Assembly: GCA_037178675.1 (NCBI GenBank)
Contig: JAYMGJ010000016.1
Coordinates: 26,588-90,587, forward strand
Direction of reading: 5' to 3'
Length of the DNA stretch: 64,000 bases
Source of the DNA: Scleroderma bovista
Taxonomy: Eukaryota > Basidiomycota > Agaricomycetes > Boletales > Sclerodermataceae
The notes under the pieces were generated by a model that made no database searches, had not been told where the DNA came from, and saw only the letters and a list, made by a program, of their open reading frames with translations. A program made the translations under genes and the position numbers. Positions 40,152 through 47,960 of the stretch are shown here, piece after piece; position 1 is the first letter of the stretch; every line of letters begins with the position of its first letter.

Positions 40152-40158
40152 GATCATA
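40152..40158. repeat. Target-site duplication GATCATA, left
   Basis: Directly abuts the left inverted repeat; identical 7-mer abuts the right one at 47954-47960. Confidence 0.8.
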
Positions 40159-40209
40159 CCCAGTGAAAACTGGCTATTACCTGGTGTGACGTGGTATGAT
40201 GAGATATGA
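40159..40209 (+). repeat. Left terminal inverted repeat (51 bp)
   Basis: Starts CCCAGTGAAAACTGGC and ends GATGAGATATGA; identical to the reverse complement of 47903-47953. Confidence 0.95.
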
Positions 40210-40246
40210 CTTATGTAATGAAGAAAGTTAGATGTGGTTGTACTGA

Positions 40247-40267
40247 GTCACACTGGGTCGTACCATG
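40247..40267 (+). repeat. Subterminal repeat of transposon (copy 1)
   Basis: GTCACACTGGGTCGTACC matches the inner part of the terminal repeat read in reverse (GTCACACCAGGTAATAG, complement of 40174-40190) and the copy at 40424. Subterminal repeats are transposase-binding sites in CACTA elements. Confidence 0.55.
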
Positions 40268-40423
40268 AGACTGACGTAGTATACGGGGGCACGACTCTGT
40301 ATTACACTGTATTACATTTTTCCGTACAATCATACCCGCGCATATCTGGGAATATCCTGTTGCGCCGCTGTGTACATTGTACAATATGCCTACATATGCT
40401 CCCATATGATGTGATATTATGAA

Positions 40424-40444
40424 GTCACACCCGGTCATATATGG
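40424..40444 (+). repeat. Subterminal repeat of transposon (copy 2)
   Basis: GTCACACCCGGTCATATA, second interior copy of the same motif as 40247-40267. Confidence 0.5.
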
Positions 40445-40687
40445 TAATATTCAGTCACTAGCATTTGCACTGCGCGGATATGCTCCAAAATGACCATATA
40501 TTACATTCTAACACGTAGCGTATCTAGTGGGATGCGGGGTATGTGTACATGGGTGTATACAGCCAATAATAACACGTCCGTCCGTTGTCGTTCCAAGAAT
40601 GCATGCCAAGGGGAGTGGACAGAGACAGCACTGGGTGTCAGTATACTGATCAATAAAGTAAGAAACTGTCCTGTAATTGTATCAACT

Positions 40688-42858
40688 TCAATGCACGAAA
40701 AGGATGCCTAAAAGAATGCGGGTGCCGTTGAAAACGAGAGCGAGTTGTCTAGTAAAGCTTTCCGGTCTCGATAACGACCTTGGACCAGCCATTTGCGTCG
40801 ACCTGCTGACGAATGAGCGCGTCTCTTGTATCGCTTTGTTACCCACCAGTTCCTTGGCTTCTTTGTCGTAAGCCTGAGATTTTATCTCATTAGTACCTGG
40901 CCATAATAATAGATGCGACGTACCTCGCGTTGAGCTGGCGTCAGCGCCTTGTCATAGTAGGCCCGGAAGTCTTCTTTTTGTCCATTCGCGTTCACTTGTT
41001 TCAGCCATCGTCGCATACAGAGATTCCTAGAGAGCGTGTTAGCAAGCGCATCAGTTATAATAAACTGTATTTACTGTCCGTTTTTGGTGCCCGATGGCCG
41101 TAATTTCGCCTTGGCTTTGGCCATTGTATTATTCGTAGTTGTGTCCGAACCGCCGGATCCATTGCTTGGCGTGTTTGTTGAGCACTCACCAGACAGATGG
41201 GATGGCCCAGTAGGGCACGGCTTTGGGGGATCTGGGATGGGAGGGACAGCCGCTGTCTTCACTTTTGATGCAGCGCTAGCCAATAAAAGCCTGCGTTCCG
41301 ACGATCAGTGAAGTGACTGTCAATGAGCCAAATACTTACATGGGGTCGTATGACACCGAGCTATGGGTGGCGGGCACGTTGTTGACAACCGGCGAGTTTT
41401 CCTTGTTCGCCGAGCGCTCCAGTTGGCTCATGCTAGCTTGTGTAGGCAGCGCCCCAAGTGTGTTGCTTTCTGTTGGGCGGACGGCCGATTCTGTGCCGTG
41501 GATAGTGCGTGGTTCTAAGGAAGTGTTAGTAGCGCCAATAGGATAATTGAGTGCTTGCTGAGACCCTCTGAATCTCGTGATTGTTCCATGGCGTCTGCCT
41601 CTTCACTCGGTTGGAAATCGCAGACAGGCGTCTCTATGCGGGTGTGAGCGAGAAAATAAGAAGAAAAAAAAGCATTCAGACCTGGGTTCATCACCTCTAC
41701 AGTGTCGGAACGACTGGATGGGCTGGATGACTGTCCATACCCGCCAGCGATGCCTTCGTGAGTGCCTGACATGTTCTCCACTGTGGTGGCTCGACCGATC
41801 AGTAGACACTATCATATAGAACAACTCACCTTTTTGTTTCTTGCTCGATGGCCGTAAGGTATCTGCATGCCCCTTGCGCTTCACAGGCTTGTGGTCCTCG
41901 AGACCTTTGTCCTCGTCGGATGCTTCTTCCTTGACAACGTTGCGCGCATTCTTCTTCAAGTTCCCATCGGCATCTAAACGGCGAGAGCGCCAGGATGGGT
42001 ATAAATACGTGCAAAGGTGTTCGAGCTTCCATCCGTCCTCGGCAAGCTTGAAGAACGAGAATTGTTTCTCCATGGTCGACTGTATGAAATGCCGGGTGCT
42101 CGTGCTGGCCTTGCCCCAGGTGTCTGGAGCCATGTTGCGTTGGGCAAGTTCCGTCCATCCCGCTCGTAACGCCCTTCGAGCATTTTCGAGTTTGTTGGCC
42201 TCAGGGACTTCGCCGTTTTCCTTTTCTAGGTACCCGTACAGGCCGCGGTTGCTGCGTTGGGCTTCTGGGGAGTCCAACCAGTCATCGTAATCCTTTCTCG
42301 TCCAGAAGCGCACATCTTTATGCGCCTCGCGCGTCGGGGGCTTCTCATCTTTGTTTGTTTCCTGTAGAAAAGAGTCAACGTCTAAGATGGTCGGTGCAGA
42401 TGATGGCGATTTGACTGCGCCGGCAAGTTGGTCGAAAAGGTTCCTGTCATATGAGAGTTAGCTCTAGAAAATATAGACATTCATATACGTACTTGATTGT
42501 ATCGCGCTCGGCAGTGACTTGGACCAAATTGCGCTCGAGCGCATTGCACCTATCTTGCAAGAAACTAAGCCGGTGGTCGTGCATATATGCGCCCTAAAAA
42601 ACTGTTAGCTCGTCAGAGTGAACTAAATATACTTGGAATGACTTGATGGAATGCAGGTGGGTTGATCTGAGCCGAGTAGGAGAACCCAGTTGGGCCCTGC
42701 GTGCCGATCGGCCCTGGCGCTTTGTTTGGTAAAGGCGACGCGAACAAGTCGTTATCATTGCGCTCATTGCCTGATGGAAGAAGTGAGTTAGTTGTATGAG
42801 GAGAAAGGGGGGAGGTGGGGCTGAAATTGAACGAGTCGGCAGTATCGATGGGAAACAT
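40688..42858 (-). CDS. Transposon accessory gene 1, unknown function
   Basis: Starts MFPIDTADSFNFSPTSPLSP, Pro/Ser-rich, then a coiled coil (HDHRLSFLQDRCNALERNL, VQVTAERDTIKNLFDQLA). A conserved-looking globular core follows: VRFWTRKDYDDWLDSPEAQR, GLYGYLEKENGEVPEANKLE, NARRALRAGWTELAQRNMAP, DTWGKASTSTRHFIQSTMEK, AEDGWKLEHLCTYLYPSWRS. After that come basic/acidic linkers (nuclear-type KKQK) and C-terminal exons with MRRWLKQVNANG and FRAYYDKALTPAQREAYDKE. No known domain is recognised; similar core sequences accompany Tnp2 transposases in other mushroom fungi as far as I recall. The W-rich core and C-terminal helix could be DNA-binding or a transposition cofactor (compare TnpA of En/Spm), which is inference. 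The last exon is uncertain: an alternative splice would end VVIETGKLY near 40750. Confidence 0.68.
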
Positions 42859-42989
42859 GATGAGGATGGTGGGGGAGGAAGCGAGGATTTGGCTAAGGTA
42901 AAATTCCCATCCCTTTGATTACCTCACCATTAGTCTCGACTCTTAATTAAAAACACGCCCACTACCCTGTCATAACATAACAAACAAAC

Positions 42990-43861
42990 ATGTCATTGCC
43001 GCCGACTCATTTACTCTTTGCTCCCGCGCCGACCATTACTATGGTCCAGAATGATGTCTTCGTCGACATCGAAGCCCTTGTCTCTGATTGGGACGCGTAC
43101 ACGTTCTCTCTTGACATCCCTTCACCGGGAAAAAAGGTAAGCCTCATCCAACTTGTAATCGAGTTTACTAGTCTCATCAAATATATTAGAGGGTCGTCTT
43201 GCGTATCAAACACCCCGATTTGCACAAGTATAGTCGTCCTCGGGTCAGGGAACCCTACGCACAACCCATCCGACTCGAAAACATCACCCTAGAATACAGT
43301 CAAGACTCTGATTTTGCGCAAGAAGACCTCCCAATCAAGCTGGAGTCAGAGGCTTGCACGGTTCCCAACGTGGAAGAAGGCTCTGATTCCCTCAGCATCA
43401 AGTCTGAAGATCACGCTGATTCCTCGTAAGTCTTTTCTCTCAAAACTCAGTATATCTCACAACTCCACCAGCGCGTTGGGTACTGTATCCCCGTCGTGTC
43501 GCGTTTTCAAGGAAGAGGACTCCACACAAGGCAACGTCAAGCCAGGGCCCGACGTTAGCATCGAGTCAGATGCAGCTGATCGCGTTCATTCATTGTAAGT
43601 CATTCATTCATTAATCAAAGTATATTTGACTTGTCTACTACCAGGGTGTCTTCTACTATAGCCCCACTCCCCTGCCGCGTGCTCATCAGACGCACCAGTG
43701 ACCCGGCACGAGAGGGAGATGGACCCCCCAACTCGTTGAAGTATTACATTCGATCATTCGATCCTTCAATTCTCCCGTTCGAAATCACGCAAAGGAAAGC
43801 GGGAATTGCGGCGCATGAGGAAGAGCTAGAGCGGGAGAACAAACGTTGTAGACTACTTTGA
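42990..43861 (+). CDS. Transposon accessory gene 2, unknown function
   Basis: Four exons (42990-43136, 43190-43425, 43472-43594, 43645-43861) join in phase to 240 residues. The sequence is MSLPPTHLLFAPAPTITMVQ, NDVFVDIEALVSDWDAYTFS, RVVLRIKHPDLHKYSRPR, then a middle with three similar short segments rich in Val-Lys-Glu-Glu (DLPIKLESEACTVPNVEEGS, LSIKSEDHADSS, VKPGPDVSIESDAADRV), which resemble sumoylation-type psi-K-x-E sites (IKLE, IKSE, FKEE). The C-terminus is PCRVLIRRTSDPAREGDG and a helical ELERENKRCRLL. The family is not recognised. It is divergent from accessory gene 1 (131 bp between starts) and converges with the transposase gene 107 bp away. Confidence 0.68.
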
Positions 43862-43968
43862 TACCTGATCTTGTTGCATTGTAATTTTTCTTGGTGCTCA
43901 GTCTTTGTTACTGTGGCTTCAAACAAAGTGTTGTCGATTGTCCGTTAGATACTGTATGTTCTGTACAA

Positions 43969-46900
43969 CTATTCAACGTCTTGCCCCACGTCGTCATCGT
44001 CCCCCTCGCGGTATATACTGTAAGGTACTCCCCACTTGGAGATGTCGTACCCAGGACGCTCCATCATACAATACATTTCCTGCTCTGCGCCTGATGGCAA
44101 AGCCATTCGCTGAGGGATCATCGCAATCACGCCAGTGATTTGCTTGACGCGGATGACCAAGATCGTGTCCGTTAGTTGCGAGGCCAGCACAACGTGATTG
44201 GAGCGTTGAAGTAGTTCGGGGTCGGGTGCAGAATACATTCGAACAAGGGCCACGTCTGCAAACTCGGCGTTGTTGTCTGCATCCGAAATGGCAAGCCTTG
44301 TGAAGTACTGCACTTCTCCGCATCGGGTGACTTCTTCGTCAAGAAACTACAGCAGTTCCTTGTCAAGGCTGTGACTGGCTGTAGGAATTGTACTTACTTT
44401 GACATTGCGTGAGACGCGGATTTGCTCTGGAAGCCGAAGTGTCTCCCTCCAAGCGGAGCGGGCAATCTGGCCATTTGGTAGGCGCAGTCGGGCCCACTTC
44501 TTGATACGCGGTAAGACATGTTCAGGGCCGAGAAAGTGTGAGATGGCAGCGGCTTCGTCACCACGGGGAATGACTGCATTCTTGGCACGTTTGCGAAGTA
44601 AGATGTATCCATTGCCGATGTCGACCGACCCATACGGCGGTCCAGTATTTGAGTCGTCGAGTTCTGGCATGACGCTGAGGAGCGAGTTGACCTGGCACCG
44701 CCGGACGCCCTCGCGGGATAAATTGGCAAATGGTTTTGATGGCTGTCGAATTTGCTCGCCAAGATTGCCGATTGTGCGTTCCATGGTCCATTGGGCATAG
44801 CATATTGGTGGCCCTTTGTGGATAGCCTCTGAGACAAGGTGGACGACTTGGTGCACACATGGCCGGATGAAGTGGATGCGGGATTCGCGTAACTTGTAAT
44901 AGATGAGTTCGAACTCGTGCTCCCAGCTGCACAGCAGAGCATGGGCGTCGAGGAGCTCCTCCTTTGTTAACGAGCTTTGGCACATGATTTGGAATCCGCG
45001 CACAAGTTTGCAGTAGTTAGCCCAGTATTCCATTGGCAGAACGTTGTAGAGTAGGATGGGAGCAAGGCCGAAAATGTACAGCTGGAATTCCCAGGTCTTG
45101 TACTGGGTATTGATCTTCTCGGCGATGTTTCGAGGCTTGCGATCATACGAGCTGGGTAGAAAGTGGCCAGCATGCTCTACCGCGCTGCCATGCGCACGCC
45201 AGACTTCTTCGTTTGATAGAACGGCCCACGGCCAGTCGGCTGGGTCGTCATCGACAGAGTGATCGAGGGTGCCACGCCAAAGGGAAATGAGAAGATCGCT
45301 GATGTTGCCCGCGAGATGCATGATGTCTGTTGTCATGCATAAGGGCACGCCGAGGGATCGCGAGGGCGAGAGTGCAAGAATAAGCGGAGGTTTTGTGAGA
45401 CCCGTTTCTGTCTTCTTTTTGTCCCATTGAGTTTGATTAGGCACGGCGACGATGGTCTGAAGATGGGTAGCATACTCGGCACATCCGCCAAGCGCAAGCC
45501 TGAAGACGTCAATGTCGGCGTGATCGCTACCTCGGGGACAACGGTCGCGAGGCTTGAGCAATGCCGGATAGTAATGCTTGCCGTTGGTTTTCCGTCTGCT
45601 GATGGACCCACAATACATGCGACAGCCATTCTTGCCACTGTGACCAACCATTCCATTCCAGTAGACGAGACCGGGTCCGTCTGCAGTGGTAAATATAAGA
45701 TAGATGTCGGAGAGGTAACGGGAATCCGTACGCGCGTTCCAGATAGGGAGCCCTTCAGCTTGAAGCGCAGCAAGGTGGTGCAAACCTGGGAAAAGAAAAG
45801 AGTCGACATTCTTGGGCTTGTTGGGGCCAGGAATAAAGCCGCCCGGGCAAACGTGAAGTTTGCGATAACGTTTGTCTGGGGGTAGGTTGACGATGATCCA
45901 GATGTAAATCCAACAATCGGATTCCTTGCTGTCATATAGCTGGGCTCCGTCGAGTGAGACCATGACAACGATGTCATGAGATTTGATGTCACCGTCAAGG
46001 ACGGCCCCGAGATAGTCCCAGCCCATGGCAATATCGTCAACAACGGGGATGCCACCCGTCTCCCGTATCTGCTGTAAAACCTCTTCCGTCCGTTGATGTA
46101 GGTAGTCCATATCTATCGCGCTGTCTTTGTTCCGGTATAGAGCTTGGAGCTGGGGACCAATAGGGATGGTGGTGAATGTTTGCGCGGCGATCTTAGACCG
46201 TCCATGGGTTCCCTGCAGCCTTTCGTCCTTCCAGCGGGATGTGCCGCATGTCGGGCATGTATCGAGATGAGCGAATGGACCGGTATACGCGATGCATGTG
46301 TTGCGGCACATGTCATGTTCAATAGACACGACGCCGGTGTATGAAGCAATGAACTTCTCGACGTTGTGGAAGCTCAAGATATTGTCTGCACCGAGGGAGC
46401 CGGTAAAGGCGTCCCTCGCTGCCCGACAAACACGGTTGTACGCGACTTGAGATGTATTTTCGAGGGCAAGATATGCTGCGATGGAGAAGCGCGTGCCTGG
46501 ATCTTCAATGGGGGTGATTTCATTAGGGGGGTTCCGCAACTGCTGGAGAGTGTCTGTGCTGAGGTTGGCGACTGGATCGTCGAGCGAGGCATTCTTGAGG
46601 GCCATGATAAAGTCCATGGTGTGGCGCATGGAGGGAAGGGTGGCTGTGGCTGCTAAAGCTGCAATATCAACAATAGGGCGTTGCCTTCGTTGATACTCTA
46701 TGTTGATTCGCGGGATATTATCACGATTCCCTGGAGGCGTTGGGGGCGGCGGATGGTCGGGCGTGGGTGGTCGTTCCTGCAATAAACATGAGTATGAAAG
46801 CGAGAGGCGGCCAATAAACAACGTACCTCGTCATAGTGGACCTCTGGAGGCGTTGGGGGCAGCGGATGGTCGGGCGTGGGTGGTCGTTCCTGCAATAAAC

Positions 46901-47732
46901 ATGAGTATGAAAGCGAGAGGCGGCCAATAAACAACGTACCTCGTCATAGTGGACCTCTGGAGGCGTTGGGGGCAGCGGATGGTCGGGCGTGGGTGGTCGT
47001 TCCTGCAATAAACATGAGTATGAAAGCGAGAGGTGGTCAATAAACAACGTACCTCGTTATCACAATTCCCTGGAGGCGTTGGGGGCGGCAGATGGTCGGG
47101 CGTGGGTGGTCGTTCCTACGACAGACAGACGTCAGTGTGCGAGAGGCACTCAGTAAATAACTTACCTCGTCATAGTGGAACCCTGGGGGCGTTTGCGGCA
47201 GATGGTTAGGCATGCGTGGTAGTTCCTACAACAGAAATCAGTTCAAACAAGAAAATATATACTGATGGAGCGACGTACCTCAAAACAATCCTCTAAAAAC
47301 GTTTGCGAGGAACGGTCAGAAGTTCTTGGCGGTTCCTACAATAGATACAATGGTCTTGAAGTTAGTATCATAGTAAATGGAATGAAATGGACTCACGTTG
47401 TTCTGGATACGAGCCCGTTTCCGACGTCCCACACTGTGACGAGCGTCCTCGACTGTTTCAAGCCGCCTTTTGACCATGGCTTGGATGGTGGCTGCACGGC
47501 GACCCGTGGTGTTGACAGACGGGCGGTCTGCTCTGGAAGCTCGTAAATGTTGTTTCTCTTCTTCAGTATCGGCTTCTTCAATATGGCGGTACCAGGTTGC
47601 TTTCGAGACCGGATGGGGGCGTCCGAAGTTGTGCTTGCGACAGAGACATATGTATTCCGTTGACTGTCGGGCTGCACTCGAAGCCATGGGCGAAGAGCTG
47701 GTGGACGTGGAAAGGGACGGGGAAGAGGGCAA
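43969..47732 (-). CDS. Tnp2-family (Plavaka-type) transposase
   Basis: Eight exons, all phase 0: 47397-47732, 47279-47335, 47166-47225, 47053-47115, 46940-47002, 46827-46889, 44398-46776 and 43969-44346, giving 1,132 residues with no internal stop. The N-terminus MPSSPSLSTSTSSSPMASS leads to a C-x-C finger, ICLCRKHNFGRPHPVSKATW and YRHIEEA, typical of Plavaka proteins. A Pro-rich repeat region is encoded by six tandem exon units. The Tnp2 part has CRNTCIAYTGPFAHLDTCPT-C (zinc ribbon), VMVSLDGAQLYDSKESDCW, CPGGFIPGPNKPKNVDSFLF, MVGHSGKNGCRMYC, and CMTTDIMHLAGNISDLLISL with candidate catalytic Asp and Glu/His. Then come TMERTIGNLGEQIRQPSK and a final exon VQYFTRLA, MERPGYDISKWGVPY. Such enzymes cut and paste elements by a DDE mechanism. 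Catalytic residues were assigned by eye. Confidence 0.92.
46777..47335 (-). repeat. Tandem exon-intron units within transposase gene (113-bp period)
   Basis: Each unit is one 57-63-nt exon encoding a variant of ERPPTPDHPLPPTPP plus about five more residues, followed by a 50-53-nt intron. Exons at 46827-46889 and 46940-47002 are identical (63/63), and the 50-nt introns at 46777-46826 and 46890-46939 are identical. The next intron (47003-47052) differs at two positions, and units further 5' diverge increasingly. The 5' end of the large exon (46776 leftwards) is the sixth copy. Confidence 0.9.
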
Positions 47733-47902
47733 TGCGGAGTGTGTACCACTGTAGTGTGTCGTGCGTAGTCACTGTGTGTGTCCGCTGCGTACGCTGCGTA
47801 GTGTAAACGATGCTATCGATCTACGTATCGCAGCACACGGCGCAGCCCAAAAAGGAAGGTGTAATATTCAGGAGAGATCTCGTCATATTTTTCACGTCGA
47901 TT

Positions 47903-47953
47903 TCATATCTCATCATACCACGTCACACCAGGTAATAGCCAGTTTTCACTGGG
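47903..47953 (-). repeat. Right terminal inverted repeat (51 bp)
   Basis: Reverse complement is identical at all 51 positions to 40159-40209. Confidence 0.95.
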
Positions 47954-47960
47954 GATCATA
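47954..47960. repeat. Target-site duplication GATCATA, right
   Basis: Identical to 40152-40158. An eighth G can be counted if the right end is placed one base earlier. Confidence 0.8.

What the first reader, a model, noticed from the sequence alone, without database searches (positions are those of the whole stretch)
46777..47335. A minisatellite whose repeat unit is a complete exon plus intron, inside a transposase gene
The transposase gene holds six tandem copies of a unit of about 113 bp. Each unit is one exon of 57-63 nt (always divisible by three) plus one phase-0 intron of 50-53 nt, so every duplication adds both an intron and an in-frame Pro-rich block (ERPPTPDHPLPPTPP plus a short tail). 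The two units nearest the large exon are identical in exon and in intron. The next intron differs at two positions, and the 5'-most units are clearly diverged. That gradient shows stepwise amplification. This turns ordinary tandem slippage into intron gain and linker-length change without breaking the frame, and gives a dated series of duplicate introns in one gene. I know of exon duplication in general, but not of this arrangement described for Plavaka transposases.
Basis: seen in the sequence. Interest (0 to 1): 0.88.

Follow-up and report, generated by a model that had tools for sequence, protein, structure and literature searches.

The report
Repeating exon-intron blocks in jumping gene
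Inside the transposase gene of a fungal mobile element lies a tandem array whose repeated block is predicted to be one small exon plus one intron, and related copies in the same genome carry two to eight such blocks, so ordinary repeat slippage likely adds or removes introns and protein spacer length without breaking the reading frame.

Summary
Window 46777-47335 is five head-to-tail units (110, 110, 113, 113, 113 bp), each a mini-exon of 57-63 nt plus a 50-53-nt intron; a sixth exon copy is fused to the large exon. The gene is the transposase of a complete DNA transposon (40159-47953; 51-bp TIRs; 7-bp TSD). Fourteen copies in the genome hold 2 to 8 units. Two copies differing at 63 of 4842 sites differ by exactly one 113-bp unit (plus 10 bp in intron 1). 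A frame-blind intron caller gives 60 of 66 mini-exons divisible by three; units 2-3 show low dN/dS in the coding frame between subfamilies A, B and C (not D). In relatives outside this clade the same Pro-rich linker is a plain coding repeat with a 51-bp period, so the intron-bearing unit likely replaced it once. Corrections: by Pfam it is Transposase_21 (tnp2), not Plavaka; and the kind is known, as intron-containing repeat expansion is published for Cryptococcus CNN00420. New is the setting: a mobile, many-copy gene with intronless sister lineages. Splicing is untested.

The parts
40159..47953 (.). Complete DNA transposon holding the gene
   Evidence: 51-bp terminal inverted repeats, identical at both ends; copies at other loci end at the same places
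40152..40158 (+). Target-site duplication, left (GATCATA)
47954..47960 (+). Target-site duplication, right (GATCATA)
40159..40209 (+). Left terminal inverted repeat, 51 bp
47903..47953 (-). Right terminal inverted repeat, 51 bp
47397..47687 (-). Exon 1: CxC..WxRH region and basic GRRKRAR stretch
   Evidence: gene model; homologous N-termini in P0021, P0034, P0038
47336..47396 (-). Intron 1 (61 nt)
47226..47335 (-). Unit 2: mini-exon 47335-47279 (57 nt) + intron 47278-47226 (53 nt)
47116..47225 (-). Unit 3: mini-exon 47225-47166 (60 nt) + intron 47165-47116 (50 nt)
47003..47115 (-). Unit 4: mini-exon 47115-47053 (63 nt) + intron 47052-47003 (50 nt)
46890..47002 (-). Unit 5: mini-exon 47002-46940 (63 nt) + intron 46939-46890 (50 nt)
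   Evidence: identical to unit 6 over 113 nt
46777..46889 (-). Unit 6: mini-exon 46889-46827 (63 nt) + intron 46826-46777 (50 nt)
   Evidence: identical to unit 5 over 113 nt
44398..46776 (-). Exon 7: begins with an exon-only copy of the unit, then the catalytic part
   Evidence: PF02992 Transposase_21, E 3.1e-8, above cut-off
44347..44397 (-). Intron 7 (51 nt)
   Evidence: the join matches the course of P0002
43969..44346 (-). Exon 8, with the stop codon
   Evidence: total CDS 3354 nt, 1117 aa

Best explanation
The array is a tandem repeat whose unit is predicted to be one phase-0 mini-exon (51-63 nt) plus one intron of about 50 nt, so that gain or loss of a unit by slippage or unequal recombination would add or remove one intron and about 17-21 Pro-rich residues without shifting the reading frame. 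It lies in the linker between the N-terminal region and the catalytic part of a Transposase_21 (tnp2)-type transposase. Shown: the unit anatomy; 2 to 8 units among 14 copies in one genome; a pair of near-identical copies that differ by exactly one 113-bp unit; mini-exon lengths divisible by three; constraint in the mini-exon frame for units 2-3 between subfamilies A, B and C. Inferred: that every unit is spliced as read; that the intron-bearing unit arose once, before subfamilies A-D split, from a plain in-frame coding repeat of about 51 bp still seen in relatives; that the linker is a flexible spacer whose length is tolerated or tuned; and which recombination process changes the number.
For: Unit anatomy and open frame of 1117 aa. 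Unit numbers: A 5, 5, 4; B 6, 4, 3; C 3, 2 and 6 plus a broken stretch; D 8, 8, 7 and two decayed or truncated copies with 6 and 5 in series. C16 vs C53: 63 differences in 4842 sites, one 113-bp unit, 10 bp in intron 1. Frame-blind caller: 60 of 66 bounded exons divisible by three, 52 of 58 distinct ones. dN/dS of u2+u3: A-B 0.34 (p 0.014), A-C 0.19 (p 6.5e-5), B-C 0.38 (p 0.037), with no significant result in the two other frames. CTNAY in 58 of 72 introns against 27% of shuffles. Retention of any one of introns 1-6 gives an early stop. Predicted relatives P0034 and P0038 join an exon-1 homologue to the catalytic part through a Pro-rich linker. In L030, L034, L035 and L037 the linker is Pro-rich and read in the frame of the large exon without an intron, and TRF gives a period of 51 in 4 of 4 relatives run. 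The 11 A-D copies put into a catalytic tree form one clade (support 0.927).
Against: No transcript was seen. The p-values treat related sequences as independent, and the three subfamily pairs are not independent of each other. D1 vs D2 shows no constraint (8 differences; 0.84 over u2-u5), and the within-array pair A u4 vs u5 has dN/dS 1.67. Among predicted relatives, P0021 has the exon-1 homologue but no Pro-rich linker, and 8 of 16 fetched relatives show no Pro-rich stretch in their first 300 residues, some being partial models. L030 has a stop inside the linker and L032 has its repeat in another frame, so both are decayed copies. The 6 misses of the frame-blind caller are listed under Tried and rejected.
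Confidence: 0.8

Rival explanations
1. Mirage-type repeat: the duplicated splice sites are mostly silent, and the transcript uses the outer sites or skips a variable set of mini-exons, so most units act as intron.
For: All mini-exons are phase 0, so skipping any set keeps the frame; in amphioxus genes, repeats over splice sites do not disturb splicing (PMC3087553, PMC3902484, passages).
Against: Lengths stay divisible by three and u2-u3 show coding constraint in frame only; in the mirages I read about, the units hold an exon-intron border, here a complete exon and intron.
Confidence: 0.12
2. The array is untranslated or dead sequence, and the transposase starts at a codon inside the large exon.
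For: Some database gene models of relatives start there (P0001, P0003, P0006); a protein search with exon 1 + linker found nothing at E<=1e-5.
Against: Frame, constraint and stop evidence as above; exon-1 homologues in front of the catalytic part in P0021, P0034 and P0038.
Confidence: 0.05
3. The introns are separate insertions of an introner-like element into an exonic repeat.
For: Introns of neighbouring units are near-identical, and relatives have a plain exonic repeat.
Against: Exon and intron are duplicated together as one period (units 5 and 6: 113 of 113; B_C252 u4 and u6: 59 of 60 and 49 of 50), and two copies differ by exactly one whole unit.
Confidence: 0.02
4. Assembly artefact: repeat number is wrong or the array is collapsed or expanded.
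For: Units 5 and 6 are identical, and the assembly has 850 contigs.
Against: Most units differ from each other, and arrays with subfamily-specific units are found in 14 copies on 14 contigs. Counts of identical units could still be off by one.
Confidence: 0.03

Closest known systems
Cryptococcus neoformans CNN00420 intron-containing repeat (PMC2395259; abstract, passages and section 10 read)
   Same: Basidiomycete; [quoted passage not shown] introns 3-5 identical; number differs between strains; shorter exonic repeats (about 39 nt) in the same gene
   Different: Single-copy gene with EST support for splicing; here a transposase in many dispersed copies, no transcript evidence, and intronless sister lineages
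Coccidioides SOWgp and Schistosoma SmPoMuc (PMC2576457; passages read; SOWgp only as cited there)
   Same: Repeated exons with their introns, near-identical, evolving in concert; repeat number varies
   Different: SmPoMuc units are about 1 kb with a 27-bp exon; both are surface or secreted proteins, not mobile elements
Spider silk genes with repeated introns (PMC9779670; passages read)
   Same: Near-identical introns alternate with repeated coding blocks and may promote unequal crossing over
   Different: Structural proteins of animals, much larger arrays
Amphioxus mirages, including the domesticated piggyBac gene PGBD5 (PMC3087553, PMC3902484; passages read)
   Same: Minisatellite-like repeats over splice sites, 60-160 bp in these genes, variable number, one in a transposase-derived gene
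   Different: Units hold exon-intron borders and are described as not disturbing splicing; PGBD5 is a host gene, not a mobile element
Variable internal tandem repeats of human paralogs (PMC2812944; part 1 of the results and the discussion read)
   Same: Minisatellite expansion that changes the exon-intron structure of paralogs
   Different: Units of about 30 bp on average; new introns explained by cryptic splice sites, not by copies of a complete intron

Membership tests
   No row at E<=10 for the large-exon protein; the model itself works in this genome (148 matches)
   Ends CCCAGTG..CACTGGG and 7-bp TSDs in 3 of 3 copies read at both ends
Transposase_21 (tnp2) transposases | Match to PF02992 over its curated cut-off | tested here: met
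   33.5 bits against 28.6, E 3.1e-8
Transposase_21 (tnp2) transposases | Catalytic residues and their spacing | not tested
   No structure or site alignment was made for the catalytic part
Intron-containing repeat expansion (CNN00420 type) | A complete intron lies inside each repeat unit | tested here: met
   Five units in the window, 72 curated units in 14 copies
Intron-containing repeat expansion (CNN00420 type) | Unit number differs between close copies | tested here: met
   C16 against C53, one 113-bp unit; 2 to 8 units overall
Intron-containing repeat expansion (CNN00420 type) | Splicing shown by transcripts | not testable with these tools
   No transcript data are held
Amphioxus mirages | Repeat holds an exon-intron border, not a complete exon and intron | tested here: not met
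   Each unit holds a complete mini-exon and a complete intron by prediction

The most novel reading that the evidence does not exclude
A DNA transposon clade has turned a Pro-rich coding repeat of about 17 residues into an exon+intron repeat and so spreads a frame-proof generator of intron number and linker length through its host genome: every copy can change its intron count in one slippage step, and since all mini-exons are phase 0, splicing could also give many in-frame linker lengths from one copy.
Probability: 0.35. Interest if true: 0.68.

Novelty: new variant of a known kind. Interest (0 to 1): 0.5.

Why it matters
Recent intron gains and losses are rarely caught in the act. Here one genome holds 14 dispersed copies of one gene with 2 to 8 intron-bearing units, among them a pair 98.7% identical that differ by one unit, and relatives outside the clade with a plain coding repeat in the same linker. 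That is a natural series for asking how fast intron number changes, whether exon+intron units amplify differently from plain coding repeats, and whether freedom from the multiple-of-three rule helps. For annotators it is a warning: such mini-exon arrays are easily missed.

Tried and rejected
Plavaka membership: rejected.

Protein search with exon 1 + linker: 5108 candidates, none at E<=1e-5; this is a limit of that search, since P0021, P0034 and P0038, found through the catalytic part, do carry exon-1 homologues.

More copies: four further element ends (C145, C690, C125, C646) were read; 0 of 4 has an array, they are truncated or disrupted. Other listed ends (such as C247) and catalytic pieces without a 5' part (such as L029, L033) were not read for an array. 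L018 (C339) keeps exon 1 and one mini-exon remnant and was left out of the 14.

Origin of unit introns from intron 1: only a lead. Against dinucleotide shuffles, intron 1 of subfamily D reaches 1 of 500 (all units) and 0 of 500 (own subfamily), C 5, B 17, A (the window's own) 61 of 500. One of three relatives' first introns, meant as negative controls, also scored high (L030, 7 of 500; L035 314, L034 440), and one positive control failed (A u3, 157 of 500). A first version used 54 intron-like stretches of the window as null.

C577's two last units share a donor change GTACGT to GTACAT. Homogenisation was considered, but 13 of 16 differences between C16 and C577 are CpG-type, so two parallel changes fit as well. 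Whether the unit difference between C16 and C53 is a gain or a loss is unresolved.

Limits of my own calls: the unit tree (FastTree, supports not printed) held two mislabelled duplicate rows (C_C374_u4, u5), removed. The curated model requires exons divisible by three, so it is no evidence of frame; the frame-blind count is. Of its 6 misses, 5 are 65-nt exons for which the caller took an earlier AG by my reading, and 1 is a decayed merged stretch; its 60 hits include 4 merged stretches (150-168 nt) and one of 33 nt. The curated caller also rewards a YTNAN motif, which may raise the CTNAY count. The relatives' intronless linker was rechecked: L030 (1 stop), L034, L035 and L037 read in frame; L032 does not.

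AlphaFold2 of exon 1 (4-row alignment): mean pLDDT 62.5, pTM 0.39, too weak for a fold search.

Full report
OBSERVATION. The window lies in contig C16 of a 51.8-Mb genome in 850 contigs. The nearest named proteins to the transposase come from Pisolithus, Suillus and other Boletales (order from recall); the host itself is unnamed. On the - strand a gene model with eight exons is open to its stop (3354 nt, 1117 aa). Exon 1 (47687-47397) and intron 1 are followed by five exon+intron units (47335-46777; mini-exons 57, 60, 63, 63, 63 nt; introns 53, 50, 50, 50, 50 nt). The large exon begins again with mini-exon sequence, without an intron behind it. Units 5 and 6 are identical over 113 nt; intron 4 differs from theirs at 2 of 50 sites.

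THE ELEMENT. The gene sits in a complete DNA transposon, 40159-47953, with 51-bp terminal inverted repeats beginning CCCAGTG and a perfect 7-bp target-site duplication GATCATA. The copies in C577 and C588 have their own 7-bp duplications (TGTGAGC, GCTGATG), so 3 of 3 copies read at both ends. The catalytic part matches PF02992 Transposase_21 over its cut-off and not PF18759 Plavaka, a model with 148 matches elsewhere in this genome.

COPIES. The genome search gave 57 matched pieces of the large exon. Fourteen copies keep the array region. I sorted them into subfamilies A-D; their main large-exon pieces are about 79-100% identical to the window's, one short piece of B_C252 57%. Unit numbers: A 5, 5, 4; B 6, 4, 3; C 3, 2 and 6 intact plus a broken stretch; D 8, 8, 7 and two decayed or truncated copies with 6 and 5 units in series. 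The cleanest comparison is C16 with C53: 63 differences over 4842 aligned sites, 55 of them CpG-type transitions, one 113-bp unit, and 10 bp in intron 1 (the third gap of that output is the uneven end of the slices). D2_C815 seems to have lost a unit by a deletion with both ends in introns, which leaves an intron of 31 nt.

IS IT CODING AND SPLICED? No transcript is at hand. Indirect tests: (1) A caller that uses donor, branch-like and acceptor signals and is blind to frame gives 66 bounded exons, 60 of them divisible by three (52 of 58 distinct ones; one third expected; copies are related). (2) Between subfamilies, u2+u3 show dN/dS of 0.34 (A-B, p 0.014), 0.19 (A-C, p 6.5e-5) and 0.38 (B-C, p 0.037) in frame and nothing significant in the other two frames; the three pairs are not independent. 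D1 vs D2 shows nothing (8 differences), and the within-array pair A u4 vs u5 has 1.67. (3) CTNAY lies in the last 35 nt of 58 of 72 introns against 27% of shuffled ones. (4) Retention of any one of introns 1-6 leads to an early stop. (5) P0034 and P0038 join an exon-1 homologue, with a basic stretch like GRRKRAR, to the catalytic part through a Pro-rich linker; P0021 has the homologue but no such linker. A protein search with exon 1 + linker found nothing at E<=1e-5.

HISTORY. In a tree of units (supports not printed), u2 of A, B and C is one group, while units behind it cluster within A (u4-u6), within B (u3-u7) and within C. In D, u2-u5 pair by position between D1 and D2; behind them the correspondence is less clear, and u8 and u9 of D2 group together. 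So the 5' unit is old and amplification took place downstream, separately in the subfamilies (inference). The 11 A-D copies put into a catalytic tree of 30 sequences form one clade (support 0.927), with the Pisolithus protein P0002 next to it. Outside the clade I looked at five relatives in the genome: in L030 (with one stop), L034, L035 and L037 the linker is Pro-rich and read in the frame of the large exon without an intron; L032 is decayed and its repeat is in another frame. TRF gives a period of 51 in 4 of 4 run (L030, L032, L034, L035). Of 16 relatives' proteins fetched, 8 have a strongly Pro-rich stretch in the first 300 residues (15 or more Pro in 40; the other 8 have 8 or fewer), among them Suillus and Paxillus; their gene structures were not seen. 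As the mini-exons are 51-63 nt, a protein repeat of about 17-21 residues likely came first and the intron joined the unit later. Subfamily B also has an 18-bp in-frame exonic repeat in its last exon: both modes in one gene. The source of the intron is open.

MECHANISM. A tandem repeat can gain or lose one period with breakpoints anywhere. If the period is wholly coding it must be a multiple of three; if it is exon plus intron only the exon part must be, and here 110 and 113 are not multiples of three. Each step would add or remove one intron and 17-21 residues of a Pro-rich linker between the N-terminal region and the catalytic part. Whether slippage, unequal exchange or gap repair after excision does it is not known (inference). 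Because all mini-exons are phase 0, skipping any of them would keep the frame too, so variable splicing is not excluded.

PRIOR WORK. The closest case I found is Cryptococcus CNN00420: repeats of about 107 nt with a full intron, identical introns, EST support, differences between strains (PMC2395259). SOWgp, SmPoMuc and spider silk genes are of the same general kind; amphioxus mirages and human internal repeats are neighbours. None of my ten searches listed such an array in the transposase of a mobile element; the library lacks most subscription papers and I read passages of eight of the papers listed, not all.

VERDICT. Real, well supported by copies, and best filed as a new variant of intron-containing repeat expansion. 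The new parts are the mobile, many-copy setting and the intronless relatives. Interest 0.5.

Noticed in passing
40152-47960: A Transposase_21-type element with 7-bp target-site duplications and CCCAGTG..CACTGGG ends; the Plavaka ends I read about have 2-3-bp duplications, so the duplication length may be unusual for the wider group.
   Followed up: partly
41603-42313 (- strand) and 42990-43860 (+ strand): Further open frames inside the element beside the transposase; the first has only a sub-threshold Pfam hit (CheZ, E 0.047), the second was not searched.
   Followed up: partly
L013 1471-4209 (C588): Internally deleted derivative of the element with both inverted repeats, a 7-bp duplication and a four-unit array.
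   Followed up: partly
L048 (C815), fifth unit: A 31-nt intron-like remnant that looks like a hybrid of two introns after loss of one unit, shorter than the other introns of the array.
   Followed up: no
L012, L013, L015 (subfamily B), start of the large exon: A nested 18-bp in-frame repeat (RTPDHP) in the last exon, next to the 110-bp exon+intron repeat.
   Followed up: partly
L010 and L037 (contig C577): Two transposases of the wider family lie head to head within about 2.5 kb of each other, 45% identical in the catalytic part.
   Followed up: no
L009 vs L010 vs L011: Differences between near-identical copies are mostly CpG-type transitions (13 of 16; 55 of 63; 61 of 72), as expected of methylated or RIP-like targeted elements (interpretation from recall).
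   Followed up: no
47747-47791: A two-copy 23-bp repeat just upstream of exon 1.
   Followed up: no
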